From Ligustrum vulgare (taxonomy: Eukaryota; Streptophyta; Magnoliopsida; Lamiales; Oleaceae): a DNA stretch of 64,000 bases. The translations under genes were made by a program, and so were the position numbers. Under the pieces are notes generated by a model. It saw nothing but the letters and a program-made list of their open reading frames with translations, did not search any database and was not told the DNA's origin. Shown in pieces: positions 7,892 through 42,117 of this stretch. The stretch spans positions 51,722,596-51,786,595 of the forward strand of contig OY743177.1 of the NCBI GenBank assembly GCA_963555705.1. The letters run 5' to 3'. Positions within the stretch are counted from its first letter, which is position 1; each line of letters opens with the position of its first letter.

Positions 7892-7894
<3 letters not shown>

Positions 7895-21131: not shown

Positions 21132-23508
21132 TATATATAAATACTCAAGGCAAGGAAATACCTGCACTCTGCTTGTTTGTGCTTCTGCCACTGGAATAAC
21201 TTCTGCTTCTGCTTCTGCCCAGTCTGTTAGATTGGGCATGTCATCTAGAATGAGTGTTTCAAGTGCTGGGAATAGAGTAGTCTCTCGGGTACTGTCACCG
21301 TAGAATGAAAGACCTATGGATCTTACGTTAGTCAAGCTGCATAATTCAAGACGTTTGAGGAGAGGCAGGTGGCCAAACATTGGGATATCTTCACATTTTT
21401 TGCAACTTCTGAACTTGATCTCGATCAAATTATTAAGATTTAACCAAAGGCTAGTCCATAATGGGAAATTTGTACCTCGGAATCCTGCAATTGTTATACT
21501 TTTCAAATTTAGGTGAGGTTGCAGGCCTTCTAGGACACTTTCGTCATTGATATTGCTTTCCTGGACATTCCCAACATTGGCTTTGACATGCTCATCATTA
21601 GTTTTCCAGATAAACTCTAACTTAAATATCTTTGGCTTTCCAATCAAATCTGCTTTCTTAGCTTCTTGGCAGCTATTCACTAGTTGAAGATTGCGTATCC
21701 CCAATTCACCTCCAAGATTCTTCAAGTATCCCAACTCTTCGATTCTGCAGCCTTCCTTATCACCCACATTAAAAAATGGTAATGTTTGAAGACAAGATAA
21801 CCTTCTCATATTACGTGGCATCGAGAAATCTTCATCGTATGTATGAAAATAGAGATGCCTCAAATTAGTCAAGCAGTGCAGCGTTTCTGGAAGCTGATGA
21901 AGGGAGAAGCAGAAATAAATCCTTAAAGTTTGCAAATTATAGAGCTTGCAAATTGAATCAGGCAAAGTTTTAATTCTATGATTGTTGGACGTATCAAGAT
22001 ATCTCAAATGTATCAACTTTCCAATTGCAGAAGGGAGAATTTCAATGTCCGTGTACCATAACTTTAGAGTGTGCAGGTGCTTGAACCATGGCAAAATTTT
22101 GTCAGGCAAGCTGCGGTCCAAAAATAATGAGCGAAGATAACTTGCTTTCTCTTTTGTCATCGCGTGTAATTGCTCTCCCGTTACAAGGTATCCGTATCTA
22201 ACTTTAGGAATGTCATCAGTAGAGCGATCCTCAGCATTAAAGCTTTCTGAATTTGAAACTTCAAATGCAAGATCATGCACAAGATCATGCATCTTGCAAT
22301 ATTCGATATTGCCATAATAATCCTTTTCTGCCTCTTGCAGGAAGGAATTTTGCAACAGAATGTTAAAAAATGTATTGCCTATACTCTCCATATTGTTTTC
22401 TCGATCATCAGGAAGAAATCCTTCCGCCATCCAAAGTTGAATTAATTTTTCTCTCTCTAATATTGAATCCTTGGCAAATATGGAACAGTAGGCAAAACAT
22501 TTTTGAAGTAACGGAGAAGATAACCGATCAAAGCTTATCTTTAAGACTTGCTTTATACTGTTCTGATTTGCTTCAAGATTTGAAAGCCCCTTCTCTAGAA
22601 CTGAAACCCAATCATTTACTTCCTTTCCTTGCAAAGTTCCGCCTACCGTTTTTGCTGCTAACGGTAGACCTTTACATTTGCGAGCAATCTGCTTTCCAAC
22701 GTTCTCAAATTGTTCAGATACTTGTTCATCTCCAAAGGTCCTTGCTTTTATTATAGACCAGCATTCATCATCTGTTAGCAATTTCAAGCTGTATGGATCT
22801 CTGTAAGTTTTCACAATTGATGCCACAGTTTGAAGACGTGTAGTCACCATGATGACATTTCCTTTATTGGGGTTAGCTCCCACCATAGTATTTCTGAAAT
22901 CATCCCAGGCTCCTCTATTTTCATTCCACAAATCATCAAGAACAAGTAAGTATCTTTTGCCTCCCAATTTCTCTCGAAGCTTATCCACAACAGCTTGCCT
23001 GCTGGCTCCTTGAGAAATTTCTCCTGATAAGGACTCCAGAATCCTTTTAAAAAGCATCAGCACATCAAAATTTTCAGAAACGCATACCCAAATCCTAAGG
23101 GGGAAATGTCTCTTTGTTTGCTGGTGATTGAAGATCGACCGAGTTAAGGTTGTCTTGCCAAGCCCTCCCATTCCAACTATGGGAAGGACTGAAAGAACCT
23201 CATTGACGTCAGGTGTAGTTATCTGCTGCACAAGTTCTGATTCCTCATTTTGTCTCCCAACGACGATTGGATCCACAGTTATGCTATCAGTTTCCATGAC
23301 TGGTGGCACAATGAGAGCATAATTCCCAACACTCTGGAGGCGAAGGTCAAGAGCGCGTTTATTAATCTCTTGGAACTTGACATTGATCTCCTCGATTCTA
23401 TGAGCCATTTTCCATCGGAATGCCAACTTTAGATTCATCCGGTTCCGGTTCTCCGCCACACGACGCATATTTTCATAGTTAATTTCATCCAAGACGTTAT
23501 CAGCATCA

Positions 23509-23513
23509 TAAGC
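23509..23513. other. Target site duplication TAAGC (left) of copia element D
   Basis: TAAGC directly precedes the LTR start TGTTGGG and is repeated at 42262-42266 directly after the LTR end CCCAACA. The resistance-gene frame is restored across it ([13 protein letters not shown]). Confidence 0.96.
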
Positions 23514-24157
23514 TGTTGGGTATTTGACCCAAATTAATCAAGTGCCTAGTGAAACATAATAAGTGTCTAGTTGAAACAAAGGATGGTGGAGCTAATTATG
23601 GTATTTGAATGATAATTAGCCTTGACTAATTATGATGTCTTTGAATGATAATTAGTTTTGACTAATTATGATGTCTTTGAATGATGATTAGTTTGACTAA
23701 TCATCATGTTTTGGTGTTAAGAGAATTTCATGTAGATTTCTCTCTATAAATAGAGAAGGAATTCAAGGAATAAATACACCACCACAAACATATTAGAGAG
23801 TGCTAATTAGTGTCATATTGTGATCAAAGAGAGAAAATTGTGAGCCTAGCATATTGTGAAGTTTCTTGTAACTCTTTGTAGTGTAAGTCAAAGGGTAGAA
23901 ATTATATGTGGTAAAGCTCGTTTGTTGTATTTTCTTTGTGGTCTGTGGGATTGGGTTGGTGAGTGAAAGTCTATATATTTGTAACAATTTAATATATAGT
24001 GAAAAGCTTTGGCGAGGGTCCGTGGACGTAGGCATTTTGCTGAACCACGTAAATTTCTGTGTTCGTATTTATTTTCTTGTTTGCTTATTTTATTTTGAAC
24101 ATCGAAAGATCCTGTGGAAAAATTAAAGTGGGAATTGACGTGTCGAAATTCCCAACA
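23514..24157 (+). repeat. 5' LTR of copia element D
   Basis: 644 bases, TGTTGGG...CCCAACA. It carries a tract of about three 36-base units (23600-23705) with the inverted pair ATAATTAG/CTAATTAT in each, then a TATA box (CTATAAATAG at 23744-23753). The sequence TTGGCGAGGGTCCGTGG at 24011-24027 is the empty version of the site where array E sits in the other LTR. Confidence 0.95.
23744..23753 (+). promoter_or_regulatory. TATA box in 5' LTR of copia element D
   Basis: CTATAAATAG, the best promoter match in the LTR, just downstream of the hairpin-repeat tract. Transcription would start about 30 bases further on. The same box is at 25616-25625 in the 3' LTR. Confidence 0.7.
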
Positions 24158-25349: not shown

Positions 25350-25890
25350 TGTTGGGTATTTGACCCAAATTAATCAAGTGCCTAGTGAAACATAATGAGT
25401 GTCTAGTTGAAACAAAGGATGGTGGAGTTAATTATGGTATTTGAATGATAATTAGCCTTGACTAATTATGATGTCTTTGAATGATAATTAGTTTTGACTA
25501 ATTATGATGTCTTTGAATGATAATTAGTTTTGACTAATTATGATGTCTTTGAATGATGATTAGTTTGACTAATCATCATGTTTTGGTGTTAAGAGAATTT
25601 CATGTAGATTTCTCTCTATAAATAGAGAAGGAATTCAAGGAATAAATACACCACCACAAACATATTAGAGAGTGCTAATTAGTGTCACATTGTGATCAAA
25701 GAGAGAAAATTGTGAGCCTAGCATATTGTGAAGTTTCTTGTAACTCTTTGTAGTGTAAGTCAAAGGGTAGAAATTATATGTGGTAAAGCTCGTTTGTTGT
25801 ATTTTCTTTGTGGTCTGTGGGATTGGGTTGGTGAGTGAAAGTCTATATATTTCTAACAATTTAATATATAGTGAAAAGCTTTGGCGAGGG
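25350..25890 (+). repeat. 3' LTR of element D, left portion
   Basis: Matches 23514-24020 of the 5' LTR but has one additional 36-base unit in the hairpin-repeat tract (about 25438-25577). It ends at GAGGG (25886-25890), the left target duplication of array E. Added to 42123-42261 it gives 680 bases, exactly 36 more than the 5' LTR. Confidence 0.95.
25886..25890. other. Target site duplication GAGGG (left) of array E
   Basis: GAGGG precedes LTR1 and recurs at 42118-42122 directly after LTR3. The undisturbed site is in the 5' LTR of element D at 24016-24020. Confidence 0.96.
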
Positions 25891-26253
25891 TGTAGCGCCC
25901 CGAGTTCCGTATACCCGATTCACTACGTCATTTTCTGTCTAAATTTTTCGAATAATATTTTTGCGGAAGAAGTAATTGAAATTCATTTTTGGCAACATTA
26001 AATAAACTGTAATGGCCGCTAAAATTGAAAACATTTATGAAACCATTTGAAATAGTAAATCGAACCATTAATATTGTAAAGAAATTGCCAATATCATAAT
26101 TTCTCAAATAAATGAACTTCTCTAAATTATTCGATTGTTTGGAAAATATGAAAATCATTAACGTCAAACTTTCAACCGTTCAACGATTATTGCCACCATC
26201 ATTCATCGCTCGCCACCGTCTCCGAAATCTGCAAAACTGTTAAAAAGTAGGGT

Positions 26254-26277
26254 GAGTATTTCATGGGGGAAATACTC
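26254..26277. other. Hairpin conserved between LTRs of array E and element C
   Basis: GAGTATTTC ... GAAATACTC with a 6-base loop. The flanks are alike in element C (12655), whose loop is AAAA. Repeated at 32783 and 39312. Confidence 0.8.
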
Positions 26278-26582
26278 AGTAGACTCATCGCAAATTAATT
26301 TAATTTATAAGATGATTAAACACATAAATCCCGGCTCTTTATAAAACGGGCATTGATAGAGCTTCTTTATAAAACTGCTCTTGATAAAACTCATATTGTG
26401 CATTACAGCACGGGACATATTTTACAAATCATAGGCTCTTTGAAAATAGCTCTTTGAAAACAGCTCTTTGAAAACCATATACTTATAAAAACATTTTAAT
26501 TATGTCAAGCATAATTTCTTTTGAAAGCATAACATAAGATATGATTGAAATCTTCATAAACATAAATAGACACAAGAACTGT

Positions 26583-27073
26583 ACCGAACTTAGGTGGCAA
26601 GAATTCTTATGCAGTAAAATCATAATAACAGTAAGTTTTCATCATAACATAGGATAAAATCGAAATCCTCATAAACATAAGAATTTTACCGAACTTAGGT
26701 GGTAAGAATTCTTATGTAGTAAAATCATAATAACAGTAAGTTTTCATCATAACATAGGATAAAATCGAAATCCTCATAAACATAAGAATTTTACCGAACT
26801 TAGGTGGCAAGAATTCTTATGTAGTAAGTCATAATAACAGTAAGATCATAATAACAGTAAGTATACCAAAACATAATTCATGAAATTCATAGGGATCATT
26901 TCCATCATAACATAAGATAGGATCGAAATCCTCATAAACATACGCGACAGGAATTTTACCGAACTTAGGTGGTAAATCCTCATAAACATATGGAAAGACA
27001 GGAATTTTACCGAACTTAGGTGGTAAATCCTCATAAACTTATGGAGACACAGAATTCTACCGAACTTAGGTGG
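26583..27073. repeat. Hairpin minisatellite in LTR1 (ACCGAACTTAGGTGG units)
   Basis: The 15-base core starts at 26583, 26689, 26793, 26958, 27009 and 27059. It is embedded in longer units with AAGAATT...AATTCTT or TTTACC...GGTAAA arms that can fold. Spacing varies between about 50 and 165 bases. The same array is in LTR2 and LTR3. Confidence 0.88.
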
Positions 27074-29789
27074 TAAGAATTCTTATGTGCATAGCAATGA
27101 TCCAAAACATATAAAACATTATCGTAAAAACATAGGGTATACTTACTTTTCATAAAAACATAAGGTATATTTACCTTTCATAAAAACATACTTGTTTTTC
27201 TTAAAAATTGACTTTCACAAGTCACATGACATTTATATGAAATCATAATTTAAATCAATTAATAAGTGCGAGTCTACATCAAATCCGACGAGTGCAAAGT
27301 TGAGCGGGAATGACTTCAATTTCTTTAAATTCTCCGTACGCTTCGTCTTAGCCAATAAGTCACTTTAGTATATCGAATATATAGTTCAAAATGATAAATT
27401 ATAATTTGAGGACTAAAATTGATGTTTTGAAAGTTGAGGGACTAAAATGAATACTTTTGAAAGTTGAAGGACTAAAATGATTACTTTGAAAGTTGAGTCG
27501 GAAACTCAAAACAATAGGGTTGAAATAATAGATTTTGAAAATGAAAGGGCTGAAATGATTGTGTTTTGAAGCAGTAGGGTCCGATTTGAAACTTTTTAAA
27601 AGCTTGGGGACTGAAATGATTATTTTTCAAACTTGGGGGCTAATATGCAAATTTCAAAAATCAACCTTTTAATATCAGATTTTAACCCTCTCTCACAACT
27701 CGTTATCAGATCGAAGGAGGGACGCAGCGACTGCCTCGCCAAAATCCGACCTTTAGCCGGTGATTCGCCGGCGAACTCAACGGCGCAGGCTGCGGTGAGT
27801 GGCAGACAAAGCAGGGTTCAGATTTTAGGGCTTGGGTTTGAGAAACAAGGGCGAAAACGAAGCAAAAGTCGAAGCTGGAGATCGCGGTTTCCGGCGATGT
27901 AACCGACGATCGAGGTAGGTAGGTATTTTGGGTATTCTATTTCTTGGGTTTTGATTTGGGGTTCGATTGATGGGGGTTCGAGGTTGGTGCGAGATTGGGT
28001 GTGAGAAAAAAAACTGAGATGAAGTCGCGATTTGGAAGTGATATTTCTGGTTCAGTTGGTGAGCTTGGGATTGGGTGTTGGCTGATCAGTATGGAATGGT
28101 GATAAATGGACAGTGGTGATTGAGGTGGTGATGAGACAGTGGAGTAGGTGGCCGGTGATGCTGGTTGCGGTCATTATGTTGGTGATGAAGGTTTGTGTTC
28201 TTAGTTGAGGCGGTGTTGGGTTGTAGTGGCTCACGGTGGTTGATGGTTTGGAAATTGATTTGGGCAGTAGAGGCGTAAGTGGTGACTGTGGTGATGATGG
28301 AAGTTCATGGCTGAAGATTGAGTAATGGCAGTGATGGAATTGTGGTGTAACTGATTGGTACTGATGATGGTTGGTTGGGTAGATCAGTGGTTGCAGTGAT
28401 GAAACAGTTATGGCTTGCTGTAGGTTGATCTATGTGTGGTAAATGGTGGCTGCTGATGGTTTCTGATCGAGGAGGTGATGGCAGAGTGATGGACGGTGAG
28501 GCAGTGTGGGTGGACTGTGGTTGCACTCGTCTGGGATGGAGATGGAGCTTGGTGCAGGTGATGAAGATGTATGCTTATATATATTGTATTGTGGAATCTA
28601 AGTACATGGAAGTGTGAGTTGTGCCATGAGTATTGAAATGAAGATGGGGTAGATGATGATAATGATGAAGATGCTTTGCTTTGGTGTTTGTATAATGAGA
28701 TGGAATATGAAATAGATGTAAAATTTATATATATAATGATGATGTTTTTGTATAAGGAATTGTATTAAAACTGATATATTTTGGACTGAAAATAAATTTG
28801 AATAAGGAAAATTGAAATATTTTAATAAATTTGGAATTCAAAATAATTTTGAAAATAATACTTTGAATAAACAATTAAAATAACATAATTTTAGAAATTC
28901 GGACATTTAATTTAAAATCGAACAAATTCGATATTTCTTGACTTGGCTAGACGAATCCGTCGCGGCGTTAACTTCAAAACAATGAGTGAAATAGTAGCGA
29001 CACGATTTTCTAAATATTAAAATAATTATAAAATTGCGTAAAAATTCTGGATCGCTATAATCTTACCTCCTTAAAATAATTTCGTCCTCGAAATTAAACT
29101 TACTTAATCTTATAATTTCTGAATACTAAATCAGAATCTCTTCTTCTTATCATCGAATATTCTCAAAATAATCAAAACAATTCCCAATCGTATGTAAAAA
29201 TTTCATCATATCTTGTAGTATTCATGTAACTTGTCACTTATCATCGTATCATGTGACCTCAAATATTCGTATATATCTCTAAAATTTCAACAAATCTTTA
29301 CTGACATATCGTATCATAATAATTTTTTCCTTTCTTATCATCGAAAATTCCAAAAATAATCAAAGAATTACCTGAATATCTTCTCTACGTAATATACCCA
29401 AACATATCAACATAATATCATCAACTTATCTTTCCAATATTTGTAACCCAAAATTCAGTAAACAAATATCTCCTAAAACTAAGATTCTATACTTAAATGT
29501 CACCACATTTCTTGCAAAGTATTTCTTTCACTTGTATATACGTATGAATTCTGATTCAATACGGTACTCATTTTACTTTCCACGTATCATCACATTATAC
29601 TATGATTATCATTATTTTAACAAAATATCAGTACCCATAATCCAAGAAAATATTCCAAATCTCCAATCAAATCTCCTTTATCGATAAAATTTAATAGCGC
29701 ATTACTTTGTCTCCTCTTTTCCATTAAAATAATCCTGCTCTTTCTTGCTGGACACAACATCACGCGGATTCACTCAGATCCTTAACGCT

Positions 29790-29798
29790 TTTAAATAG
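29790..29798 (+). promoter_or_regulatory. TATA-like box upstream of the cysteine-rich ORF (copy 1)
   Basis: TTTTAAATAG-type box 33 bases before the ATG at 29831. The same TTTAAATAG core precedes the LOG ORF. Copy 2 is at 36319-36327. Promoter function is inferred. Confidence 0.4.
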
Positions 29799-29830
29799 TT
29801 CATGCTGGGAAGAGGTTGAATCATCAAACA

Positions 29831-30382
29831 ATGGATATCATCCTTACAAACATTCGCAAGTATTATTCCAATCTTCCTATGAATGATCTGAAAAAGATCT
29901 ATAGAATAAGGCTCGAAAGATTGAGGTTGCTGATGGCTCATGATCTTCCAGAAGATGTTCGTTGGTTGATAGAAGCAAAGGTTCGACTATCTGGTGAATT
30001 ACCATCAACATTTCCAAAGCACATGCCTGGTTTAGGCAAAAGCACGTTTGCAAAGAAACGAAGAGCAAAAAGACTGGGTGGTTGCTACAAATGTGCTCGT
30101 TGGAACTGTAATACTCGTTGCAAATCAGTAGGATATTCTTCTACTAATCGGGATGATAAAATCGAATTCATAAAGGGTGGACTGAGTAAGGAGTCTTTGG
30201 ATGATATTCGACTGACTCTTGAGACGCACCCAAGTGGTTATGTACAACGTGAACTTCTCTCCTTATACGCTCAGTTTAACGAGGACAAAAATCGTTATAG
30301 TCTCCAAAATATAATAGCAAAAGATCCTGTTTGCCAGTCTGTTTTACAAAATGAGGCTTCTGGCAGTTCAGCAATGTTATAA
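29831..30382 (+). CDS. Cysteine-rich basic protein, carlavirus nucleic-acid-binding-protein-like (copy 1)
   Basis: The first ATG is at 29831; an upstream in-frame TTG is not a likely start. 183 residues. Residues 1-60 are helical and charged. A very basic patch at 69-81 (GKSTFAKKRRAKR) leads into a four-cysteine cluster C85-x2-C88-x4-C93-x3-C97. A DDKIEFIKGG block and a helical acidic/polar C-terminus follow. The Ser/Ala/Arg-rich patch directly before Cys-x2-Cys, with a hydrophobic FI-x2-G block after the cluster, is the pattern of the Carla_C4 nucleic-acid-binding proteins of carlaviruses and relatives. Those proteins bind RNA or DNA and act in the nucleus. The match is by pattern only, so viral ancestry is a hypothesis; a plant zinc-finger origin is the alternative. 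It is antisense to the retroelement and 300 bases upstream of the LOG ORF on the same strand. Confidence 0.7.
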   Translation: MDIILTNIRKYYSNLPMNDLKKIYRIRLERLRLLMAHDLPEDVRWLIEAKVRLSGELPSTFPKHMPGLGKSTFAKKRRAKRLGGCYKCARWNCNTRCKSVGYSSTNRDDKIEFIKGGLSKESLDDIRLTLETHPSGYVQRELLSLYAQFNEDKNRYSLQNIIAKDPVCQSVLQNEASGSSAML

Positions 30383-30599
30383 GGTAAATCTTTTAAAATA
30401 TTTTGCTGCTTTCTTTCACGCGTTTTGAAAATAAAATATATTTTCCTTTTCTCGAGTTTTGATAAAGCTGGAAATAAAATATTAAATCGCCGAAAGGTGA
30501 CAGCCTCTATACGATAAAAATATTCAAAAGTGGGCTGATTTTGTCAAAAGTAAATCTTTACTTTTTCAGAATCAATCAAAAACAGTAAATTTTTCCGGC

Positions 30600-30608
30600 T
30601 TTAAATAG
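30600..30608 (+). promoter_or_regulatory. TATA-like box upstream of the LOG ORF (copy 1)
   Basis: TTTAAATAG inside GGCTTTAAATAGCC (30597-30610), 75 bases before the LOG ATG. It shares its core with the box before the cysteine-rich ORF. Copy 2 is at 37129-37137. Confidence 0.45.
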
Positions 30609-30682
30609 CCAAACATATTTCATAGTTCAGGCATCCCAAAATCACATTTTCTTCGTAAGTTTTCTCTTCTATACTATCAAAG

Positions 30683-31336
30683 ATGGAAGCACCAAAACTT
30701 CGACAGATCAAAACTATTTGTGTATTTTGTGGATCAAAAGTAGGGAAAGGCTTCGGTTATCTAGAAGCGGCTGTAGATCTTGGAAAGAAACTGGGGGAAA
30801 AAGGTATCACTCTTGTGTATGGGGGTGGTAGCAGTGGTCTAATGGGTTGTGTTTCCCAATCTGCTCTTGCAGAGAAATCAAAAGTAATCGGTGTTATACC
30901 TGTCCCTTTGGTAGATGTTGCAGGCAAAACACGAGGGCATGAAGTTCAAACTTTATCCATCCATGAACGCATAACTTGTATGCTATATGGTTCTGATGCC
31001 TTTATAGCCCTGCCCGGAGGTTTTGGTACCTTAGAAGAAATTTTTAACATTACCTCGTGGGCTCAACTAGATCTCCATACTAAACCTATTGGGCTTCTGA
31101 ATGTTAACAATTTCTTTGATGGTTTGTTAACCTTTCTTGATTATGCTGTGGAACAGGGATTCATCTCTCCATTTTCCAGAAGGCTTCTTATTTCTGCTCC
31201 TACTATTGATGAACTACTGGATAAGCTGCAGTCATATATCTCAATACAAGATCCAGCAGGAGTTAAGATAGATTGGTCGCAAGGAAGGGGAATCAAGCGA
31301 AAATGGAGTCCGGTTAATGTAAACTTAACTCTGTGA
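30683..31336 (+). CDS. LOG: LOG: cytokinin riboside 5'-monophosphate phosphoribohydrolase (copy 1), intronless retroelement cargo
   Basis: 217 residues, the normal length of plant LOG proteins, from ATG 30683. LOG enzymes release active cytokinin bases from their riboside monophosphates in one step, usually in cytosol and nucleus. Signature blocks are present: ICVFCGSKVGKG near the N-terminus (12-23), VYGGGSSGLMGCVSQSA (45-61) and PGGFGTLEE (111-119, the PGGxGTxxE motif with E119). Also present are SWAQLDLHTKPIGLLNVN and a VEQGFISPFSRR segment. R96 in HER corresponds to the catalytic Arg, but the next residue is Ile where classical LOGs have Lys. The tail is basic (KRKW) and ends VNVNLTL. Plant LOG genes normally have several introns; this frame has none, as expected after capture through RNA. 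Open and identical in both array copies. Confidence 0.93.
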   Translation: MEAPKLRQIKTICVFCGSKVGKGFGYLEAAVDLGKKLGEKGITLVYGGGSSGLMGCVSQSALAEKSKVIGVIPVPLVDVAGKTRGHEVQTLSIHERITCMLYGSDAFIALPGGFGTLEEIFNITSWAQLDLHTKPIGLLNVNNFFDGLLTFLDYAVEQGFISPFSRRLLISAPTIDELLDKLQSYISIQDPAGVKIDWSQGRGIKRKWSPVNVNLTL

Positions 31337-31346
31337 ATCTTAGAAT

Positions 31347-31565
31347 AGGTGGGGGTAGAGTACGGAGTATTCTCACTCTCGAGACACCCCTCCATTTACT
31401 AGGATTTCCTTAATGTTTAAATCTTGTGTGTACTTCAAAGATTCCAGGTGGTAGATTACGGAGTATTCTTACTCTCGAAACACACCTCTTTGAAGGTTTT
31501 CTCTATTTCCTCAAAAGATCAGAGGTGGTAGGATACGGCTACTCCGGAAACACATCTCTCATTCT
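31347..31565 (+). repeat. Three hairpin-like repeats downstream of LOG (copy 1)
   Basis: Units begin AGGTGG(G)GGTAGA/AGGTGGTAG at 31347, 31446 and 31523. They share TACGGAGTATTCT..ACTCTCGA-ACAC in the first two and a shortened TACGGCTACTCCGGAAACAC in the third. GAGTA/TACTC pairs can form a short stem in unit 2. They lie in the presumed 3' untranslated region. Copy 2 begins at 37876. Confidence 0.7.
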
Positions 31566-31657
31566 GAGGATCTTTCCATGTTTTTCTCTTATGCTTTCGT
31601 GTGTTTCATGTATTTCCTTTCCAGTGTGACTCTTGTGTGTTCTCCTTATGAGAAAAT

Positions 31658-31663
31658 AATAAA
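31658..31663 (+). terminator. Possible polyadenylation signal for LOG (copy 1)
   Basis: AATAAA about 320 bases after the LOG stop, following the repeats. It is the only canonical signal near the ORF. Copy 2 is at 38187-38192. Confidence 0.4.
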
Positions 31664-32404
31664 ATCTCTGCTATCATCTACTAAATCTCGTTTGTGATGT
31701 AAATGATCTTGCATGTCTAACCTTAATTCCTTTAGTGGATGCTTATCATATTATGCTCTTAATTCCAAATGATAAAATTCTGGATAGAGTCTCCCTTGTA
31801 ATTTGGACTTATCCAAACCATAAGCATACTTCATAATTCACAATAATAAATAACTCCACATTTGATCACGACGATCTAAAAATATTGAAAACGATTCCAA
31901 CACTTCAATATCATCAAAATATCCCATAATTCAATTCATAATTCCTCAATATAGAAATTTCAAATCATATTTTTCAATATCACAATATTACTTCCTTCCA
32001 TACCTTAATTGGCTCAAAAGTTACTCATACTTATAAATATATGCCATAAATCATATTGTTCCCATTATGCTCAACACTCGTTTTCTTTCTTAAAAAATTT
32101 CTCATAATCATACATTAAAGCATATAAGTTATGACAAAGCATAACAACATCATTATTTTCGAAGAAATACATTCTTATTTCTCATAAATCATAAGTATCC
32201 GAAATACTCTTCATTCTTTCTCATAAATCAATAAAATGAGTATTCGAAATACTGAAATAACTTTAAATATTATAAACTTCTTTACCTCGGAGTTGGTGGA
32301 ACGAATGATGGCAGTGGCAATCTTCATCAATAAAAATCTTATAATGGAAAATATTTCTTAAAATTCTTTTTGAAAATTTTACCAGTCTACAGAAACGCAG
32401 ACTA

Positions 32405-32416
32405 GCTCTGATACCA
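32405..32416 (-). other. Primer binding site of array E, body 1 (initiator tRNA-Met)
   Basis: GCTCTGATACCA on the + strand is TGGTATCAGAGC on the - strand, three bases from the LTR2 border. It fixes the element's orientation as -. Copy 2 is at 38934-38945. Confidence 0.92.
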
Positions 32417-32419
32417 ACT

Positions 32420-35400
32420 TGTAGCGCCCCGAGTTCCGTATACCCGATTCACTACGTCATTTTCTGTCTAAATTTTTCGAATAATATTTTTGCGGAAGAA
32501 GTAATTGAAATTCATTTTTGGCAACATTAAATAAACTGTAATGGCCGCTAAAATTGAAAACATTTATGAAACCATTTGAAATAGTAAATCGAACCATTAA
32601 TATTGTAAAGAAATTGCCAATATCATAATTTCTCAAATAAATGAACTTCTCTAAATTATTCGATTGTTTGGAAAATATGAAAATCATTAACGTCAAACTT
32701 TCAACCGTTCAACGATTATTGCCACCATCATTCATCGCTCGCCACCGTCTCCGAAATCTGCAAAACTGTTAAAAAGTAGGGTGAGTATTTCATGGGGGAA
32801 ATACTCAGTAGACTCATCGCAAATTAATTTAATTTATAAGATGATTAAACACATAAATCCCGGCTCTTTATAAAACGGGCATTGATAGAGCTTCTTTATA
32901 AAACTGCTCTTGATAAAACTCATATTGTGCATTACAGCACGGGACATATTTTACAAATCATAGGCTCTTTGAAAATAGCTCTTTGAAAACAGCTCTTTGA
33001 AAACCATATACTTATAAAAACATTTTAATTATGTCAAGCATAATTTCTTTTGAAAGCATAACATAAGATATGATTGAAATCTTCATAAACATAAATAGAC
33101 ACAAGAACTGTACCGAACTTAGGTGGCAAGAATTCTTATGCAGTAAAATCATAATAACAGTAAGTTTTCATCATAACATAGGATAAAATCGAAATCCTCA
33201 TAAACATAAGAATTTTACCGAACTTAGGTGGTAAGAATTCTTATGTAGTAAAATCATAATAACAGTAAGTTTTCATCATAACATAGGATAAAATCGAAAT
33301 CCTCATAAACATAAGAATTTTACCGAACTTAGGTGGCAAGAATTCTTATGTAGTAAGTCATAATAACAGTAAGATCATAATAACAGTAAGTATACCAAAA
33401 CATAATTCATGAAATTCATAGGGATCATTTCCATCATAACATAAGATAGGATCGAAATCCTCATAAACATACGCGACAGGAATTTTACCGAACTTAGGTG
33501 GTAAATCCTCATAAACATATGGAAAGACAGGAATTTTACCGAACTTAGGTGGTAAATCCTCATAAACTTATGGAGACACAGAATTCTACCGAACTTAGGT
33601 GGTAAGAATTCTTATGTGCATAGCAATGATCCAAAACATATAAAACATTATCGTAAAAACATAGGGTATACTTACTTTTCATAAAAACATAAGGTATATT
33701 TACCTTTCATAAAAACATACTTGTTTTTCTTAAAAATTGACTTTCACAAGTCACATGACATTTATATGAAATCATAATTTAAATCAATTAATAAGTGCGA
33801 GTCTACATCAAATCCGACGAGTGCAAAGTTGAGCGGGAATGACTTCAATTTCTTTAAATTCTCCGTACGCTTCGTCTTAGCCAATAAGTCACTTTAGTAT
33901 ATCGAATATATAGTTCAAAATGATAAATTATAATTTGAGGACTAAAATTGATGTTTTGAAAGTTGAGGGACTAAAATGAATACTTTTGAAAGTTGAAGGA
34001 CTAAAATGATTACTTTGAAAGTTGAGTCGGAAACTCAAAACAATAGGGTTGAAATAATAGATTTTGAAAATGAAAGGGCTGAAATGATTGTGTTTTGAAG
34101 CAGTAGGGTCCGATTTGAAACTTTTTAAAAGCTTGGGGACTGAAATGATTATTTTTCAAACTTGGGGGCTAATATGCAAATTTCAAAAATCAACCTTTTA
34201 ATATCAGATTTTAACCCTCTCTCACAACTCGTTATCAGATCGAAGGAGGGACGCAGCGACTGCCTCGCCAAAATCCGACCTTTAGCCGGTGATTCGCCGG
34301 CGAACTCAACGGCGCAGGCTGCGGTGAGTGGCAGACAAAGCAGGGTTCAGATTTTAGGGCTTGGGTTTGAGAAACAAGGGCGAAAACGAAGCAAAAGTCG
34401 AAGCTGGAGATCGCGGTTTCCGGCGATGTAACCGACGATCGAGGTAGGTAGGTATTTTGGGTATTCTATTTCTTGGGTTTTGATTTGGGGTTCGATTGAT
34501 GGGGGTTCGAGGTTGGTGCGAGATTGGGTGTGAGAAAAAAAACTGAGATGAAGTCGCGATTTGGAAGTGATATTTCTGGTTCAGTTGGTGAGCTTGGGAT
34601 TGGGTGTTGGCTGATCAGTATGGAATGGTGATAAATGGACAGTGGTGATTGAGGTGGTGATGAGACAGTGGAGTAGGTGGCCGGTGATGCTGGTTGCGGT
34701 CATTATGTTGGTGATGAAGGTTTGGGTTCTTAGTTGAGGCGGTGTTGGGTTGTAGTGGCTCACGGTGGTTGATGGTTTGGAAATTGATTTGGGCAGTAGA
34801 GGCGTAAGTGGTGACTGTGGTGATGATGGAAGTTCATGGCTGAAGATTGAGTAATGGCAGTGATGGAATTGTGGTGTAACTGATTGGTACTGATGATGGT
34901 TGGTTGGGTAGATCAGTGGTTGCAGTGATGAAACAGTTATGGCTTGCTGTAGGTTGATCTATGTGTGGTAAATGGTGGCTGCTGATGGTTTCTGATCGAG
35001 GAGGTGATGGCAGAGTGATGGACGGTGAGGCAGTGTGGGTGGACTGTGGTTGCACTCGTCTGGGATGGAGATGGAGCTTGGTGCAGGTGATGAAGATGTA
35101 TGCTTATATATATTGTATTGTGGAATCTAAGTACATGGAAGTGTGAGTTGTGCCATGAGTATTGAAATGAAGATGGGGTAGATGATGATAATGATGAAGA
35201 TGCTTTGCTTTGGTGTTTGTATAATGAGATGGAATATGAAATAGATGTAAAATTTATATATATAATGATGATGTTTTTGTATAAGGAATTGTATTAAAAC
35301 TGATATATTTTGGACTGAAAATAAATTTGAATAAGGAAAATTGAAATATTTTAATAAATTTGGAATTCAAAATAATTTTGAAAATAATACTTTGAATAAA

Positions 35401-35588
35401 CAATTAAAATAACATAATTTTAGAAATTCGGACATTTAATTTAAAATCGAACAAATTCGATATTTCTTGACTTGGCTAGACGAATCCGTCGCGGCGTTAA
35501 CTTCAAAACAATGAGTGAAATAGTAGCGACACGATTTTCTAAATATTAAAATAATTATAAAATTGCGTAAAAATTCTGGATCGCTATA
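32420..35588 (-). repeat. LTR2 of array E (middle LTR)
   Basis: 3,169 bases, same as LTR1 apart from G at 34725. It is shared by both units, serving as 5' LTR of unit 1 and 3' LTR of unit 2. It contains the same hairpin (32783), minisatellite (33112-33602), GC-rich and G/T-skewed segments. Confidence 0.93.
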
Positions 35589-36359
35589 ATCTTACCTCCT
35601 TAAAATAATTTCGTCCTCGAAATTAAACTTACTTAATCTTATAATTTCTGAATACTAAATCAGAATCTCTTCTTCTTATCATCGAATATTCTCAAAATAA
35701 TCAAAACAATTCCCAATCGTATGTAAAAATTTCATCATATCTTGTAGTATTCATGTAACTTGTCACTTATCATCGTATCATGTGACCTCAAATATTCGTA
35801 TATATCTCTAAAATTTCAACAAATCTTTACTGACATATCGTATCATAATAATTTTTTCCTTTCTTATCATCGAAAATTCCAAAAATAATCAAAGAATTAC
35901 CTGAATATCTTCTCTACGTAATATACCCAAACATATCAACATAATATCATCAACTTATCTTTCCAATATTTGTAACCCAAAATTCAGTAAACAAATATCT
36001 CCTAAAACTAAGATTCTATACTTAAATGTCACCACATTTCTTGCAAAGTATTTCTTTCACTTGTATATACGTATGAATTCTGATTCAATACGGTACTCAT
36101 TTTACTTTCCACGTATCATCACATTATACTATGATTATCATTATTTTAACAAAATATCAGTACCCATAATCCAAGAAAATATTCCAAATCTCCAATCAAA
36201 TCTCCTTTATCGATAAAATTTAATAGCGCATTACTTTGTCTCCTCTTTTCCATTAAAATAATCCTGCTCTTTCTTGCTGGACACAACATCACGCGGATTC
36301 ACTCAGATCCTTAACGCTTTTAAATAGTTCATGCTGGGAAGAGGTTGAATCATCAAACA

Positions 36360-36911
36360 ATGGATATCATCCTTACAAACATTCGCAAGTATTATTCCAA
36401 TCTTCCTATGAATGATCTGAAAAAGATCTATAGAATAAGGCTCGAAAGATTGAGGTTGCTGATGGCTCATGATCTTCCAGAAGATGTTCGTTGGTTGATA
36501 GAAGCAAAGGTTCGACTATCTGGTGAATTACCATCAACATTTCCAAAGCACATGCCTGGTTTAGGCAAAAGCACGTTTGCAAAGAAACGAAGAGCAAAAA
36601 GACTGGGTGGTTGCTACAAATGTGCTCGTTGGAACTGTAATACTCGTTGCAAATCAGTAGGATATTCTTCTACTAATCGGGATGATAAAATCGAATTCAT
36701 AAAGGGTGGACTGAGTAAGGAGTCTTTGGATGATATTCGACTGACTCTTGAGACGCACCCAAGTGGTTATGTACAACGTGAACTTCTCTCCTTATACGCT
36801 CAGTTTAACGAGGACAAAAATCGTTATAGTCTCCAAAATATAATAGCAAAAGATCCTGTTTGCCAGTCTGTTTTACAAAATGAGGCTTCTGGCAGTTCAG
36901 CAATGTTATAA
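36360..36911 (+). CDS. Cysteine-rich basic protein, carlavirus nucleic-acid-binding-protein-like (copy 2)
   Basis: Same 183-residue translation as 29831-30382, with ATG at 36360. The basic patch (69-81) and C-x2-C-x4-C-x3-C cluster (85-97) are intact. Identity between copies shows only that the duplication is recent; it does not demonstrate selection on the frame. Uncertainties on viral origin are as for copy 1. Confidence 0.68.
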   Translation: MDIILTNIRKYYSNLPMNDLKKIYRIRLERLRLLMAHDLPEDVRWLIEAKVRLSGELPSTFPKHMPGLGKSTFAKKRRAKRLGGCYKCARWNCNTRCKSVGYSSTNRDDKIEFIKGGLSKESLDDIRLTLETHPSGYVQRELLSLYAQFNEDKNRYSLQNIIAKDPVCQSVLQNEASGSSAML

Positions 36912-37211
36912 GGTAAATCTTTTAAAATATTTTGCTGCTTTCTTTCACGCGTTTTGAAAATAAAATATATTTTCCTTTTCTCGAGTTTTGATAAAGCTGG
37001 AAATAAAATATTAAATCGCCGAAAGGTGACAGCCTCTATACGATAAAAATATTCAAAAGTGGGCTGATTTTGTCAAAAGTAAATCTTTACTTTTTCAGAA
37101 TCAATCAAAAACAGTAAATTTTTCCGGCTTTAAATAGCCAAACATATTTCATAGTTCAGGCATCCCAAAATCACATTTTCTTCGTAAGTTTTCTCTTCTA
37201 TACTATCAAAG

Positions 37212-37865
37212 ATGGAAGCACCAAAACTTCGACAGATCAAAACTATTTGTGTATTTTGTGGATCAAAAGTAGGGAAAGGCTTCGGTTATCTAGAAGCGGC
37301 TGTAGATCTTGGAAAGAAACTGGGGGAAAAAGGTATCACTCTTGTGTATGGGGGTGGTAGCAGTGGTCTAATGGGTTGTGTTTCCCAATCTGCTCTTGCA
37401 GAGAAATCAAAAGTAATCGGTGTTATACCTGTCCCTTTGGTAGATGTTGCAGGCAAAACACGAGGGCATGAAGTTCAAACTTTATCCATCCATGAACGCA
37501 TAACTTGTATGCTATATGGTTCTGATGCCTTTATAGCCCTGCCCGGAGGTTTTGGTACCTTAGAAGAAATTTTTAACATTACCTCGTGGGCTCAACTAGA
37601 TCTCCATACTAAACCTATTGGGCTTCTGAATGTTAACAATTTCTTTGATGGTTTGTTAACCTTTCTTGATTATGCTGTGGAACAGGGATTCATCTCTCCA
37701 TTTTCCAGAAGGCTTCTTATTTCTGCTCCTACTATTGATGAACTACTGGATAAGCTGCAGTCATATATCTCAATACAAGATCCAGCAGGAGTTAAGATAG
37801 ATTGGTCGCAAGGAAGGGGAATCAAGCGAAAATGGAGTCCGGTTAATGTAAACTTAACTCTGTGA
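37212..37865 (+). CDS. LOG: LOG: cytokinin riboside 5'-monophosphate phosphoribohydrolase (copy 2)
   Basis: 217-residue translation identical to copy 1, including PGGFGTLEE, R96 and the Ile after it. If expressed, two copies would double the dose of a cytokinin-activating activity from this locus. Its promoter context is the same TTTAAATAG box (37129) and, further off, the G/T-rich LTR2. Confidence 0.92.
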   Translation: MEAPKLRQIKTICVFCGSKVGKGFGYLEAAVDLGKKLGEKGITLVYGGGSSGLMGCVSQSALAEKSKVIGVIPVPLVDVAGKTRGHEVQTLSIHERITCMLYGSDAFIALPGGFGTLEEIFNITSWAQLDLHTKPIGLLNVNNFFDGLLTFLDYAVEQGFISPFSRRLLISAPTIDELLDKLQSYISIQDPAGVKIDWSQGRGIKRKWSPVNVNLTL

Positions 37866-37875
37866 ATCTTAGAAT

Positions 37876-38094
37876 AGGTGGGGGTAGAGTACGGAGTATT
37901 CTCACTCTCGAGACACCCCTCCATTTACTAGGATTTCCTTAATGTTTAAATCTTGTGTGTACTTCAAAGATTCCAGGTGGTAGATTACGGAGTATTCTTA
38001 CTCTCGAAACACACCTCTTTGAAGGTTTTCTCTATTTCCTCAAAAGATCAGAGGTGGTAGGATACGGCTACTCCGGAAACACATCTCTCATTCT
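37876..38094 (+). repeat. Three hairpin-like repeats downstream of LOG (copy 2)
   Basis: Units start at 37876, 37975 and 38052, identical to those of copy 1. Confidence 0.7.
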
Positions 38095-38933: not shown

Positions 38934-38945
38934 GCTCTGATACCA
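38934..38945 (-). other. Primer binding site of array E, body 2
   Basis: TGGTATCAGAGC on the - strand next to LTR3. Confidence 0.92.
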
Positions 38946-38948
38946 ACT

Positions 38949-41900
38949 TGTAGCGCCCCGAGTTCCGTATACCCGATTCACTACGTCATTTTCTGTCTAA
39001 ATTTTTCGAATAATATTTTTGCGGAAGAAGTAATTGAAATTCATTTTTGGCAACATTAAATAAACTGTAATGGCCGCTAAAATTGAAAACATTTATGAAA
39101 CCATTTGAAATAGTAAATCGAACCATTAATATTGTAAAGAAATTGCCAATATCATAATTTCTCAAATAAATGAACTTCTCTAAATTATTCGATTGTTTGG
39201 AAAATATGAAAATCATTAACGTCAAACTTTCAACCGTTCAACGATTATTGCCACCATCATTCATCGCTCGCCACCGTCTCCGAAATCTGCAAAACTGTTA
39301 AAAAGTAGGGTGAGTATTTCATGGGGGAAATACTCAGTAGACTCATCGCAAATTAATTTAATTTATAAGATGATTAAACACATAAATCCCGGCTCTTTAT
39401 AAAACGGGCATTGATAGAGCTTCTTTATAAAACTGCTCTTGATAAAACTCATATTGTGCATTACAGCACGGGACATATTTTACAAATCATAGGCTCTTTG
39501 AAAATAGCTCTTTGAAAACAGCTCTTTGAAAACCATATACTTATAAAAACATTTTAATTATGTCAAGCATAATTTCTTTTGAAAGCATAACATAAGATAT
39601 GATTGAAATCTTCATAAACATAAATAGACACAAGAACTGTACCGAACTTAGGTGGCAAGAATTCTTATGCAGTAAAATCATAATAACAGTAAGTTTTCAT
39701 CATAACATAGGATAAAATCGAAATCCTCATAAACATAAGAATTTTACCGAACTTAGGTGGTAAGAATTCTTATGTAGTAAAATCATAATAACAGTAAGTT
39801 TTCATCATAACATAGGATAAAATCGAAATCCTCATAAACATAAGAATTTTACCGAACTTAGGTGGCAAGAATTCTTATGTAGTAAGTCATAATAACAGTA
39901 AGATCATAATAACAGTAAGTATACCAAAACATAATTCATGAAATTCATAGGGATCATTTCCATCATAACATAAGATAGGATCGAAATCCTCATAAACATA
40001 CGCGACAGGAATTTTACCGAACTTAGGTGGTAAATCCTCATAAACATATGGAAAGACAGGAATTTTACCGAACTTAGGTGGTAAATCCTCATAAACTTAT
40101 GGAGACACAGAATTCTACCGAACTTAGGTGGTAAGAATTCTTATGTGCATAGCAATGATCCAAAACATATAAAACATTATCGTAAAAACATAGGGTATAC
40201 TTACTTTTCATAAAAACATAAGGTATATTTACCTTTCATAAAAACATACTTGTTTTTCTTAAAAATTGACTTTCACAAGTCACATGACATTTATATGAAA
40301 TCATAATTTAAATCAATTAATAAGTGCGAGTCTACATCAAATCCGACGAGTGCAAAGTTGAGCGGGAATGACTTCAATTTCTTTAAATTCTCCGTACGCT
40401 TCGTCTTAGCCAATAAGTCACTTTAGTATATCGAATATATAGTTCAAAATGATAAATTATAATTTGAGGACTAAAATTGATGTTTTGAAAGTTGAGGGAC
40501 TAAAATGAATACTTTTGAAAGTTGAAGGACTAAAATGATTACTTTGAAAGTTGAGTCGGAAACTCAAAACAATAGGGTTGAAATAATAGATTTTGAAAAT
40601 GAAAGGGCTGAAATGATTGTGTTTTGAAGCAGTAGGGTCCGATTTGAAACTTTTTAAAAGCTTGGGGACTGAAATGATTATTTTTCAAACTTGGGGGCTA
40701 ATATGCAAATTTCAAAAATCAACCTTTTAATATCAGATTTTAACCCTCTCTCACAACTCGTTATCAGATCGAAGGAGGGACGCAGCGACTGCCTCGCCAA
40801 AATCCGACCTTTAGCCGGTGATTCGCCGGCGAACTCAACGGCGCAGGCTGCGGTGAGTGGCAGACAAAGCAGGGTTCAGATTTTAGGGCTTGGGTTTGAG
40901 AAACAAGGGCGAAAACGAAGCAAAAGTCGAAGCTGGAGATCGCGGTTTCCGGCGATGTAACCGACGATCGAGGTAGGTAGGTATTTTGGGTATTCTATTT
41001 CTTGGGTTTTGATTTGGGGTTCGATTGATGGGGGTTCGAGGTTGGTGCGAGATTGGGTGTGAGAAAAAAAACTGAGATGAAGTCGCGATTTGGAAGTGAT
41101 ATTTCTGGTTCAGTTGGTGAGCTTGGGATTGGGTGTTGGCTGATCAGTATGGAATGGTGATAAATGGACAGTGGTGATTGAGGTGGTGATGAGACAGTGG
41201 AGTAGGTGGCCGGTGATGCTGGTTGCGGTCATTATGTTGGTGATGAAGGTTTGGGTTCTTAGTTGAGGCGGTGTTGGGTTGTAGTGGCTCACGGTGGTTG
41301 ATGGTTTGGAAATTGATTTGGGCAGTAGAGGCGTAAGTGGTGACTGTGGTGATGATGGAAGTTCATGGCTGAAGATTGAGTAATGGCAGTGATGGAATTG
41401 TGGTGTAACTGATTGGTACTGATGATGGTTGGTTGGGTAGATCAGTGGTTGCAGTGATGAAACAGTTATGGCTTGCTGTAGGTTGATCTATGTGTGGTAA
41501 ATGGTGGCTGCTGATGGTTTCTGATCGAGGAGGTGATGGCAGAGTGATGGACGGTGAGGCAGTGTGGGTGGACTGTGGTTGCACTCGTCTGGGATGGAGA
41601 TGGAGCTTGGTGCAGGTGATGAAGATGTATGCTTATATATATTGTATTGTGGAATCTAAGTACATGGAAGTGTGAGTTGTGCCATGAGTATTGAAATGAA
41701 GATGGGGTAGATGATGATAATGATGAAGATGCTTTGCTTTGGTGTTTGTATAATGAGATGGAATATGAAATAGATGTAAAATTTATATATATAATGATGA
41801 TGTTTTTGTATAAGGAATTGTATTAAAACTGATATATTTTGGACTGAAAATAAATTTGAATAAGGAAAATTGAAATATTTTAATAAATTTGGAATTCAAA

Positions 41901-42117
41901 ATAATTTTGAAAATAATACTTTGAATAAACAATTAAAATAACATAATTTTAGAAATTCGGACATTTAATTTAAAATCGAACAAATTCGATATTTCTTGAC
42001 TTGGCTAGACGAATCCGTCGCGGCGTTAACTTCAAAACAATGAGTGAAATAGTAGCGACACGATTTTCTAAATATTAAAATAATTATAAAATTGCGTAAA
42101 AATTCTGGATCGCTATA
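38949..42117 (-). repeat. LTR3 of array E (outer 5' LTR)
   Basis: Third copy, with G at 41254 like LTR2. It ends TCGCTATA at 42117 and is followed by GAGGG, the right target duplication, and then by the rest of element D's 3' LTR. Confidence 0.93.

What the first reader, a model, noticed from the sequence alone, without database searches (positions are those of the whole stretch)
29770..31670. A retroelement body carries a two-gene cargo: a cysteine-rich nucleic-acid-binding-like protein and a complete LOG enzyme
The sequence shows an LTR element with primer site, purine tract and target duplication, but with no gag or pol. It has two intact intronless ORFs of unrelated kind. LOG makes active cytokinin. 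Carlavirus-type cysteine-rich proteins are nucleic-acid binders that act in the nucleus. A mobile, LTR-flanked unit that could spread a growth-hormone activator and a putative regulator together is, as far as I know, not described. The functional link between the two ORFs is inference.
Basis: partly seen in the sequence, partly recalled or inferred. Interest (0 to 1): 0.93.

Follow-up and report, generated by a model that had tools for sequence, protein, structure and literature searches.

The report
Retrotransposon with conserved antisense gene pair
In this plant genome many gene-poor jumping elements carry, back to front, the same two genes (a plant-virus-like nucleic-acid-binding protein and an altered relative of a hormone-activating enzyme); selection has kept both readable, which suggests that the pair helps the elements to spread.

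Summary
The window holds a young tandem LTR retrotransposon (LTR-internal-LTR-internal-LTR; LTR 3169 bp, 5-bp target duplication) without gag or an intact pol. Primer site, purine tract and a residual pol tail show that it is a gypsy, probably Tekay-like, element reading on the minus strand, so the two ORFs are ANTISENSE to it. ORF1 is a significant match to carlavirus-type nucleic-acid-binding/cysteine-rich proteins; the second ORF is an intronless LOG-fold protein. In the same 1.38-Gb genome the pair is repetitive (150 scored hits per protein search, the cap, out of 7,000-9,000 loose candidates). It also lies, again antisense, in an older, copia-like LTR element (three copies read). Both ORFs are under purifying selection: 20 of 20 copies chosen by intergenic DNA are intact; against 16 diverged copies pooled dN/dS is 0.14 (LOG) and 0.21 (ORF1). 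The LOG keeps its catalytic Arg/Glu but has lost three pocket residues that the 11 plant LOGs compared keep, so cytokinin activation is doubtful. LOG-like ORFs in gypsy elements and antisense extra ORFs are known separately; the searches made listed no paper on this pairing. Transcription and function are inferred.

The parts
23514..24157 (+). 5' LTR (TGTTGGG..CCCAACA) of a copia-like element; contains the uninterrupted (empty) site of the insertion
   Evidence: self-BLAST and flank reading
25886..25890 (.). target-site duplication GAGGG, left copy (right copy 42118-42122)
25891..29059 (-). LTR 1 of the gypsy (Tekay-like) element
   Evidence: 99.97% identical to LTR 3 over 3169 bp
29060..29072 (-). 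polypurine tract AAGGAGGTAAGAT next to LTR 1 (second copy 35589-35601)
   Evidence: read from sequence
29063..29122 (-). residual C-terminal codons of a gypsy pol (19 codons and stop)
   Evidence: by eye; sister copies match the pol end at 14503-16530 by tblastn
29790..29798 (+). TATA-like TTTAAATAG upstream of ORF1, the same letters in 14 of 16 aligned copies of both element types
   Evidence: not tested for function
29831..30382 (+). ORF1, 183 aa, relative of carlavirus-type nucleic-acid-binding / cysteine-rich proteins
   Evidence: Pfam; family
30600..30608 (+). TATA-like TTTAAATAG upstream of the LOG-like ORF; same letters in the 8 young rows, degenerate in the 8 older rows
30683..31336 (+). 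LOG-like ORF, 217 aa, intronless, catalytic Arg and Glu kept, pocket residues M96, K100, E125 (CgLOG numbers) changed to I, I, N
31351..31559 (+). three imperfect ~42-nt repeats in the LOG 3' region (31351-31392, 31447-31488, about 31524-31559), recognisable in both element types
   Evidence: no supported RNA fold
31658..31663 (+). AATAAA poly(A)-like signal at the end of the module
   Evidence: read from sequence
32405..32416 (-). primer binding site TGGTATCAGAGC (second copy 38934-38945)
32420..35588 (-). LTR 2, shared by the two tandem units
36360..36911 (+). ORF1 of the second tandem unit, identical
37212..37865 (+). LOG-like ORF of the second tandem unit, identical
38949..42117 (-). LTR 3

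Best explanation
SHOWN: this is a gag-pol-less derivative of a Ty3/gypsy (probably Tekay-like) LTR retrotransposon whose internal region holds, antisense to the element, a two-gene module: a carlavirus-CRP-like protein (ORF1) and a LOG-fold protein. The same module, in the same order and again antisense, lies in an older LTR element of another (copia-like) type in the same genome. The pair is repetitive, and both proteins have been kept by purifying selection while copies kept transposing. INFERRED: the module is expressed from its own promoters on the antisense strand and acts for the element, which borrows gag-pol from an autonomous relative. The likeliest job of ORF1 is that of viral cysteine-rich proteins, RNA-silencing suppression and/or transcriptional reprogramming. 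The LOG-like protein is likely a nucleotide phosphoribohydrolase of altered specificity that pushes dividing tissue or nucleotide signalling in the element's favour. The module passed between the two carriers by template switching or nested insertion.
For: Anatomy and orientation; PBS on the LOG side of the module in 9 of 9 loci L012-L020; pol tail on the strand opposite to the ORFs in 13 of loci L001-L020, several being the same copies fetched twice and one weak (L017, E 0.007). Repetition: 150 of 150 scored ORF1 hits at 97-100% identity, 149 without a stop, from 8,804 first-look candidates; 150 scored of 7,899 for a LOG peptide, 150 of 7,081 for the NABP profile, 40 of 1,504 for the intergenic DNA. 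Linkage: ORF1 beside LOG in 16 of 16 LOG-chosen loci, two only in part; LOG beside ORF1 in 2 of 2 NABP-chosen loci, both LOGs broken. Selection: 20 of 20 intergenic-DNA-chosen copies intact for both ORFs, dN/dS 0.059 (LOG) and 0.233 (ORF1); shared LOG changes 16 synonymous to 2 nonsynonymous, P 6e-8; window against 16 diverged copies, pooled dN/dS 0.137 and 0.211 at dS 0.45-0.73; against the three copies shown to be copia-like (L030, L026, L036) LOG 0.09-0.12 and ORF1 0.19-0.23. Active-site Arg and Glu and the four clustered Cys of ORF1 kept in 33 of 33 young copies. Second carrier: L037-L039. Viral CRPs as silencing suppressors, one as a transcription factor inducing hyperplasia: PMC12172455 (passages).
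Against: No expression evidence of any kind. Three pocket residues of the LOG are lost, so cytokinin activation may be absent. ORF1 could not be modelled (mean pLDDT 40 in both jobs). No autonomous partner was identified. ORF1 selection is weaker than that of LOG in the unbiased set (shared 11 synonymous to 9 nonsynonymous, P 0.004; singletons 5 to 9, P 0.25). In the diverged set many copies are decayed: catalytic Arg is kept in only 7 of 14 LOG rows. The order of transfer between carriers is not resolved: one weakly supported branch (88/86), left open in the second tree. The label chromodomain/Tekay rests on a Pfam match below its cut-off (22.0 against 25.1 bits) and on the PBS type, recalled. 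Only three older copies were read at length.
Confidence: 0.6

Rival explanations
1. Ordinary passive gene capture: pieces of host or viral genes were transduced by an LTR element and ride along neutrally, looking intact only because the copies are young.
For: LTR pairs are only 0.1-1.2% diverged in nine loci; gene capture by plant LTR elements is common (PMC7264820, part 1 of 3 read); among the diverged copies themselves LOG pN/pS is 0.48, with stops and frameshifts.
Against: dN/dS 0.06-0.23 within the young sets and 0.14-0.21 pooled against diverged copies; both ORFs intact in 20 of 20 copies not chosen by coding sequence; same pair in two carriers.
Confidence: 0.05
2. The module is itself the mobile or formerly viral entity (for example a degenerate virus segment or satellite) that inserted into different LTR elements, which then multiplied it; the LTR element is only its vehicle.
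For: ORF1 is virus-like; what the carriers share is essentially ORF1 to the 3' repeats; TATA-like boxes; a module copy lies near a further LTR type (L010).
Against: Same antisense orientation wherever PBS or PPT could be read (10 of 10 Tekay-like copies, window included; 3 of 3 copia-like). No Flexi_CP match in the genome (its control rang nowhere, so this says little). No terminal repeats or target duplication around the module were noticed, but no dedicated search was made.
Confidence: 0.2
3. The LOG ORF is a normal cytokinin-activating LOG and the element spreads a growth-hormone activator.
For: LOG fold, PGGxGTxxE motif, catalytic Arg and Glu kept; strong purifying selection; the element clade is sister to plant LOGs (97/96).
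Against: CgLOG Met96, Lys100 and Glu125, reported as adenine/prenyl pocket residues (PMC4979012 passages), are Ile, Ile, Asn in 33 of 33 young copies, while Lys100 and Glu125 are kept in 36 of 36 bacterial and 11 of 11 plant LOGs compared; long stem branch of 0.6-0.9.
Confidence: 0.2
4. Selection acts for the host: some copies were domesticated and the rest are their retro-descendants.
For: Purifying selection alone does not say for whom.
Against: Intact ORFs at many dispersed sites and recent copies, and LOG changes shared by copies more constrained than singletons (N/S per site 0.10 against 0.61) fit selection among transposing copies; for ORF1 the same comparison goes the other way (0.29 against 0.12), 13 of those 33 copies having been chosen by ORF1. 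No non-repetitive locus was seen, though capped searches could miss one.
Confidence: 0.08

Closest known systems
LOG/YgdH-domain extra ORFs in plant Ty3/gypsy elements (Citrus, Populus; Steinbauerova 2011 as cited in PMC9289625, section read; the 2011 paper not seen, recalled as Athila-like elements similar to LOGL4)
   Same: LOG-type ORF inside a plant LTR retrotransposon.
   Different: Those were found by a screen that starts from reverse transcriptase; here no RT was found, the carriers are Tekay-like and copia-like, the ORF is antisense and paired with an NABP-like ORF. Homology of the two kinds of LOG was not testable.
Antisense additional ORFs between pol and 3' LTR (Grande, RIRE2, Retand, PvRetro13; PMC7264820, part 1 of 3 read)
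   Same: Conserved extra ORF in antisense orientation, function unknown.
   Different: That review says such ORFs lack similar gene sequences outside TEs; there they accompany gag-pol. Here two recognisable families and no gag-pol.
Carlavirus/mandarivirus cysteine-rich (NABP) proteins
   Same: Two Pfam families over their cut-offs, basic stretch followed by a Cys cluster.
   Different: 183 aa with a C-terminal third outside the viral match; encoded in a retrotransposon.
Orchid Gypsy elements with an AlkB m6A-demethylase ORF (PMC9289625, passages and one section)
   Same: Plant LTR element with an acquired enzyme ORF proposed to counter host control of the element.
   Different: Large element with gag-pol and one such extra ORF; no NABP-LOG pair.
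LARD-type non-autonomous LTR elements (recalled)
   Same: Long LTRs, no gag-pol, must use helper proteins.
   Different: The internal region here is coding and under selection.

Membership tests
LTR retrotransposon | Direct LTRs, target-site duplication, PBS, PPT | tested here: met
Tekay-type chromovirus (Ty3/gypsy) | Chromodomain at the pol end | tested here: inconclusive
   Tail of 60-75 residues like the pol end 14503-16530 in 13 of loci L001-L020, absent in 7; the two tails printed contain stops; that pol's own Chromo match is E 1.6e-4 but 22.0 bits against a cut-off of 25.1.
Tekay-type chromovirus (Ty3/gypsy) | Own gag and pol (autonomous element) | tested here: not met
   13 TE ORFs of the window found nothing in the window's internal region; gag/RT hits in L009 and L015 lie outside the element
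LOG phosphoribohydrolase | PGGxGTxxE motif and catalytic Arg/Glu | tested here: met
   window and 33 of 33 young copies keep Arg99 and Glu122; Arg99 kept in 7 of 14 rows
LOG phosphoribohydrolase | Adenine/prenyl pocket Met96, His97, Lys100, Glu125, Trp129 (CgLOG numbers, PMC4979012) | tested here: not met
   Ile, His, Ile, Asn, Trp in the window and 33 of 33 young copies; Lys100 and Glu125 in 36 of 36 bacterial and 11 of 11 plant rows
LOG phosphoribohydrolase | Release of active cytokinin from its ribotide | not testable with these tools
   needs an enzyme assay
Carlavirus-type NABP / cysteine-rich protein | Match to PF05515 and PF01623 | tested here: met
   window 1.1e-7 and 5.2e-6; PF05515 over cut-off in 4 of 4 further copies, PF01623 in 3 of 4; both over cut-off in 2 of 2 high-scoring copies
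Carlavirus-type NABP / cysteine-rich protein | Lies in a flexivirus genome or an endogenous copy of one | tested here: inconclusive
   Flexi_CP gave no match in the genome, but the control rang nowhere either
Carlavirus-type NABP / cysteine-rich protein | Nucleic-acid binding, silencing suppression | not testable with these tools
   bench assay needed
Antisense extra ORF class of plant LTR elements | Conserved ORF antisense to the element and kept across copies | tested here: met

The most novel reading that the evidence does not exclude
A portable two-gene helper cassette, maintained by selection over a synonymous divergence of about 0.5, moves between unrelated LTR retrotransposon families (copia-like and Tekay-like) that have thrown out their own gag-pol. 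It encodes a virus-type silencing suppressor or regulator plus a re-purposed LOG enzyme with a new nucleotide substrate, so that a parasite of a parasite carries an anti-host module on its antisense strand.
Probability: 0.4. Interest if true: 0.92.

Novelty: new variant of a known kind. Interest (0 to 1): 0.82.

Why it matters
Antisense ORFs of plant retrotransposons are a puzzle because most resemble no known protein. Here both ORFs have recognisable relatives with testable activities, a measurable selection signal, and two carriers, so the question why a retrotransposon keeps an antisense gene becomes directly testable. A screen that starts from reverse transcriptase, such as that of PMC9289625, would miss elements of this kind. 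If ORF1 suppresses silencing, it would be a retrotransposon counterpart of viral suppressors; if the LOG has a new substrate, it would point to a nucleotide signal worth knowing.

Tried and rejected
ORF1 and LOG found no relative in viral contigs, but those scans start from exact 8-residue words and are narrow. ORF1 has no relative among solved structures (two chains at E 0.26-0.27). Two AlphaFold jobs for ORF1 gave mean pLDDT 40, so no fold search was made. Rfam found nothing convincing in the internal region (one match, E 0.69, below its gathering score). The three 3' repeats looked like hairpins, but the consensus fold had no compensatory pair and near-zero energy. Host LOG genes did not appear with a 75-residue query, probably because exons are short; a degenerate DNA pattern found 11, and in 11 of 11 the hits are broken over several exons (L042, L044, L047 and L050 are only partly inside the stretch held). 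A bacterial origin of the element LOG was considered: by identity it is no nearer to plant LOGs (44-53%) than to a bacterial one (47%), but the larger tree puts it beside the plant LOGs (97/96; bootstrap not fully settled; one search warned that its long branches may meet falsely). Rows dropped: 3 of 16 diverged LOG copies without one long match (L021, L024, L027) and 2 of 11 host LOGs with low cover (L047, L050), 6 of 14 element rows (L022, L029, L031, L033, L034, L035) and bacterial loci thinned from 80 to 36, L002-L005 and L007 as second fetches or twins, the set-B copy with gaps or insertions (L011.2, one of 14 in each ORF). The 20 loci L051-L070 are 20 of the 40 scored hits: the window's two, further members of arrays and three on C1 were left out. 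The last block of the script (ORF1 among old copies) stopped with an error and gave no number.


Full report
WHAT IS THERE. The window (contig C10 of a 1.385-Gb assembly with 51 contigs) contains an LTR-internal-LTR-internal-LTR array: LTRs at 25891-29059, 32420-35588 and 38949-42117 (3169 bp each), internal regions 29060-32419 and 35589-38948. The units differ by one base, in LTR 1. The array is flanked by GAGGG and interrupts the 3' LTR of a copia-like element whose 5' LTR (23514-24157) keeps the site without the insertion. That element in turn lies, with its own 5-bp duplication TAAGC, between the Rx_N part and the NB-ARC/LRR part of an NLR resistance gene.

ORIENTATION. PBS TGGTATCAGAGC lies on the minus strand beside the LTR at 32420 and the purine tract AAGGAGGTAAGAT at the other end, so the element reads on the minus strand and both ORFs are antisense to it. 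In 9 of 9 loci L012-L020 the PBS is on the same side relative to the ORFs. tblastn with the window's gypsy pol end (14503-16530) finds 60-75 residues of its tail beside the purine-tract end, opposite to the ORFs, in 13 of the 20 loci L001-L020 (L003/L012, L004/L013, L005/L014 and L007/L015 are the same copies; L017 is weak, E 0.007) and not in the other 7. The two tails printed contain stops; in the window 19 codons remain (29063-29122, by eye). That reference pol has a Chromo match at E 1.6e-4 but below Pfam's cut-off, so 'Tekay-like chromovirus' is the likely, not the proven, lineage. No gag or reverse transcriptase was found in the window's internal region. The antisense module therefore stands where gag-pol should be.

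ORF1. 183 aa; PF05515 at 1.1e-7 and PF01623 at 5.2e-6, both over cut-off. PF05515 is over cut-off in 4 of 4 further copies, two of them from the diverged set; PF01623 in 3 of 4. The matched stretch alone of two copies picked from the top of the profile list gives 7.5e-11 and 4.5e-10. The match covers the basic stretch and Cys cluster; the C-terminal third has no match. Cys 85, 88, 93 and 97 are kept in 33 of 33 young copies. Viral proteins of this kind are described as silencing suppressors and, for chrysanthemum virus B p12, as a transcription factor that induces hyperplasia (PMC12172455, passages seen; the primary papers not seen).

LOG. 217 aa, intronless; PF03641 at 1.3e-33; best solved relative Arabidopsis At2g37210. 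The 11 host LOG genes found by pattern have their matches broken over several exons in 11 of 11. The element LOGs form one clade, 100/100, beside the plant LOGs (97/96 against 37 bacterial rows) on a long stem. Catalytic Arg99 and Glu122 (CgLOG numbers, PMC4979012 passages) are kept in the window and in 33 of 33 young copies; Glu121 is Lys in 2 of the 33; among the 14 element rows (the window and 13 diverged copies) Arg99 is kept in 7. Met96, Lys100 and Glu125 are Ile, Ile and Asn in the window and the 33 young copies; of the 14 rows none has Lys100 or Glu125 and 13 lack Met96. In 36 bacterial rows (thinned from 80) and 11 plant rows Lys100 and Glu125 are invariant. The paper reports that alanine at active-site residues nearly abolished activity, except S19A. 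That this ORF makes active cytokinin is therefore doubtful, although strong constraint says that it does something.

REPETITION. With the ORF1 protein the genome gave 8,804 first-look candidates, of which 150 were scored; these match at 97-100% identity, 149 without a stop. A 75-residue LOG peptide gave 7,899 candidates, 150 scored; the NABP profile 7,081, 150 scored, over cut-off; the intergenic DNA 1,504, 40 scored. The candidate counts are loose and are not copy numbers. Of the 150 ORF1 hits, 65 have a same-strand neighbour in the list within 8 kb, so tandem arrays sharing LTRs are common in this ranked list; one array shows six copies 6,855 bp apart (C14). The visible parts of LTR pairs in nine loci (L012-L020) differ by 0.1-1.2%: recent activity.

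A SECOND CARRIER. Sixteen diverged loci, the top of the LOG-peptide list (L021-L036), have ORF1 beside the LOG in 16 of 16, two only in part. Three were read at length (L037-L039, around L036, L030 and L026). They lie between direct repeats of about 200 bp (TGTTATAAAT..TTACAACA; the left one of L037 is cut by the end of the stretch) that differ by 7-12%, hence older insertions. The repeats are 6.0-6.1 kb apart in L038 and L039 and 8.7 kb in L037, which holds another ORF of 481 codons, probably an insertion. A purine tract AAGTGGGAG, AAGGGGGAG or TAGGGGGAG and a different primer side show that the ORFs are again antisense. I call this carrier copia-like from purine tract and end sequences, from memory; no pol was found to prove it, and my queries held a copia gag but no copia RT. 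Outside the module the two carriers share next to nothing (one 49-bp match in L038). At L010 a module copy lies near a third LTR type (TGTGACGACCCG..).

SELECTION. Twenty copies chosen by intergenic DNA, not by coding sequence: 20 of 20 intact for both ORFs; dN/dS 0.059 (LOG) and 0.233 (ORF1). In 13 loci chosen by ORF1, 12 of 14 LOG copies and 13 of 14 ORF1 copies are intact, dN/dS 0.163 and 0.154; an overlapping set of 16 gave 0.160 and 0.190. LOG changes shared by several of the 20 copies and the window are 16 synonymous to 2 nonsynonymous (P 6e-8), singletons 7 to 6 (P 0.03); for ORF1 shared 11 to 9 (P 0.004), singletons 5 to 9 (P 0.25) (sites treated as independent). Against 16 diverged copies pooled dN/dS is 0.137 (LOG) and 0.211 (ORF1), dS 0.45-0.73; against the three copies shown to be copia-like (L030, L026, L036) LOG 0.09, 0.12, 0.11 and ORF1 0.23, 0.19, 0.19. 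Those copies were ranked by LOG similarity, which flatters LOG but not ORF1. Among the diverged copies themselves LOG pN/pS is 0.48 with stops, the expected decay after insertion. In 16 elements non-coding parts diverge more than the ORFs (mean p-distance: ORF1 0.027, LOG 0.014, intergenic 0.050, upstream 0.135, LOG 3' region 0.150 with median 0.051).

HOW IT LIKELY WORKS (inferred). The LTR transcript, copied with a helper's gag-pol, spreads the element. On the other strand the module has TATA-like boxes (that of ORF1 unchanged in 14 of 16 aligned copies, that of LOG in the 8 young but none of the 8 older rows), a 3' region with three repeats and a poly(A)-like signal. Overlapping sense and antisense transcripts should invite silencing; a suppressor-like ORF1 would make sense of this. 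The LOG-like enzyme may act on a nucleotide signal or on cytokinin in dividing cells. None of this was tested.

KNOWN AND NEW. LOG-type extra ORFs in Citrus and Populus gypsy elements are in print (PMC9289625, section 'Screen for Non-canonical Domains' read), found in a screen that used reverse transcriptase as marker and so would miss elements like these. Antisense extra ORFs are known, of unknown origin and function (PMC7264820, part 1 of 3 read). Full-text searches around this pairing listed no paper describing it, judged from titles and abstract starts; several lists were capped (20 of 56, 20 of 82, 10 of 11 and 8 of 117 shown), and most subscription papers are not in that library. I therefore rate it a new variant of a known kind, with an open chance of more.

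LIMITS. 

Noticed in passing
window 20052-23513 and 42262-42551 (minus): An NLR resistance gene (Rx_N domain on one side, NB-ARC and LRR on the other) is split by a copia-like element with target duplication TAAGC, inside whose 3' LTR the whole tandem array sits.
   Followed up: yes
G000 C22:20793792-20813504, C14:29533598-29568172, C23:10310989-10338075: Tandem arrays of four to six units with nearly exact period; 65 of 150 scored copies have a neighbour within 8 kb. Unequal recombination or insertion of concatemers could explain it.
   Followed up: partly
L009-L011 (C9:58170000-58199999): A 15.1-kb array unit holds two module copies, one beside a different LTR type beginning TGTGACGACCCG: a possible third carrier.
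   Followed up: partly
window 31351-31559: Three imperfect 42-nt repeats follow the LOG stop codon and are recognisable in both carriers although no RNA fold is supported; purpose unknown.
   Followed up: partly
G000: About 23 chromosome-size contigs in 1.38 Gb would fit the olive family (x = 23, recalled); not tested.
   Followed up: no
window 766-5641 and 14503-18488: Remains of two gypsy-like elements with gag, RT and integrase ORFs; the second served here as reference for the pol tail.
   Followed up: partly
window 50196-50873 and 61062-61586: tnp2-type (CACTA) transposase fragment and a BED zinc-finger fragment.
   Followed up: no
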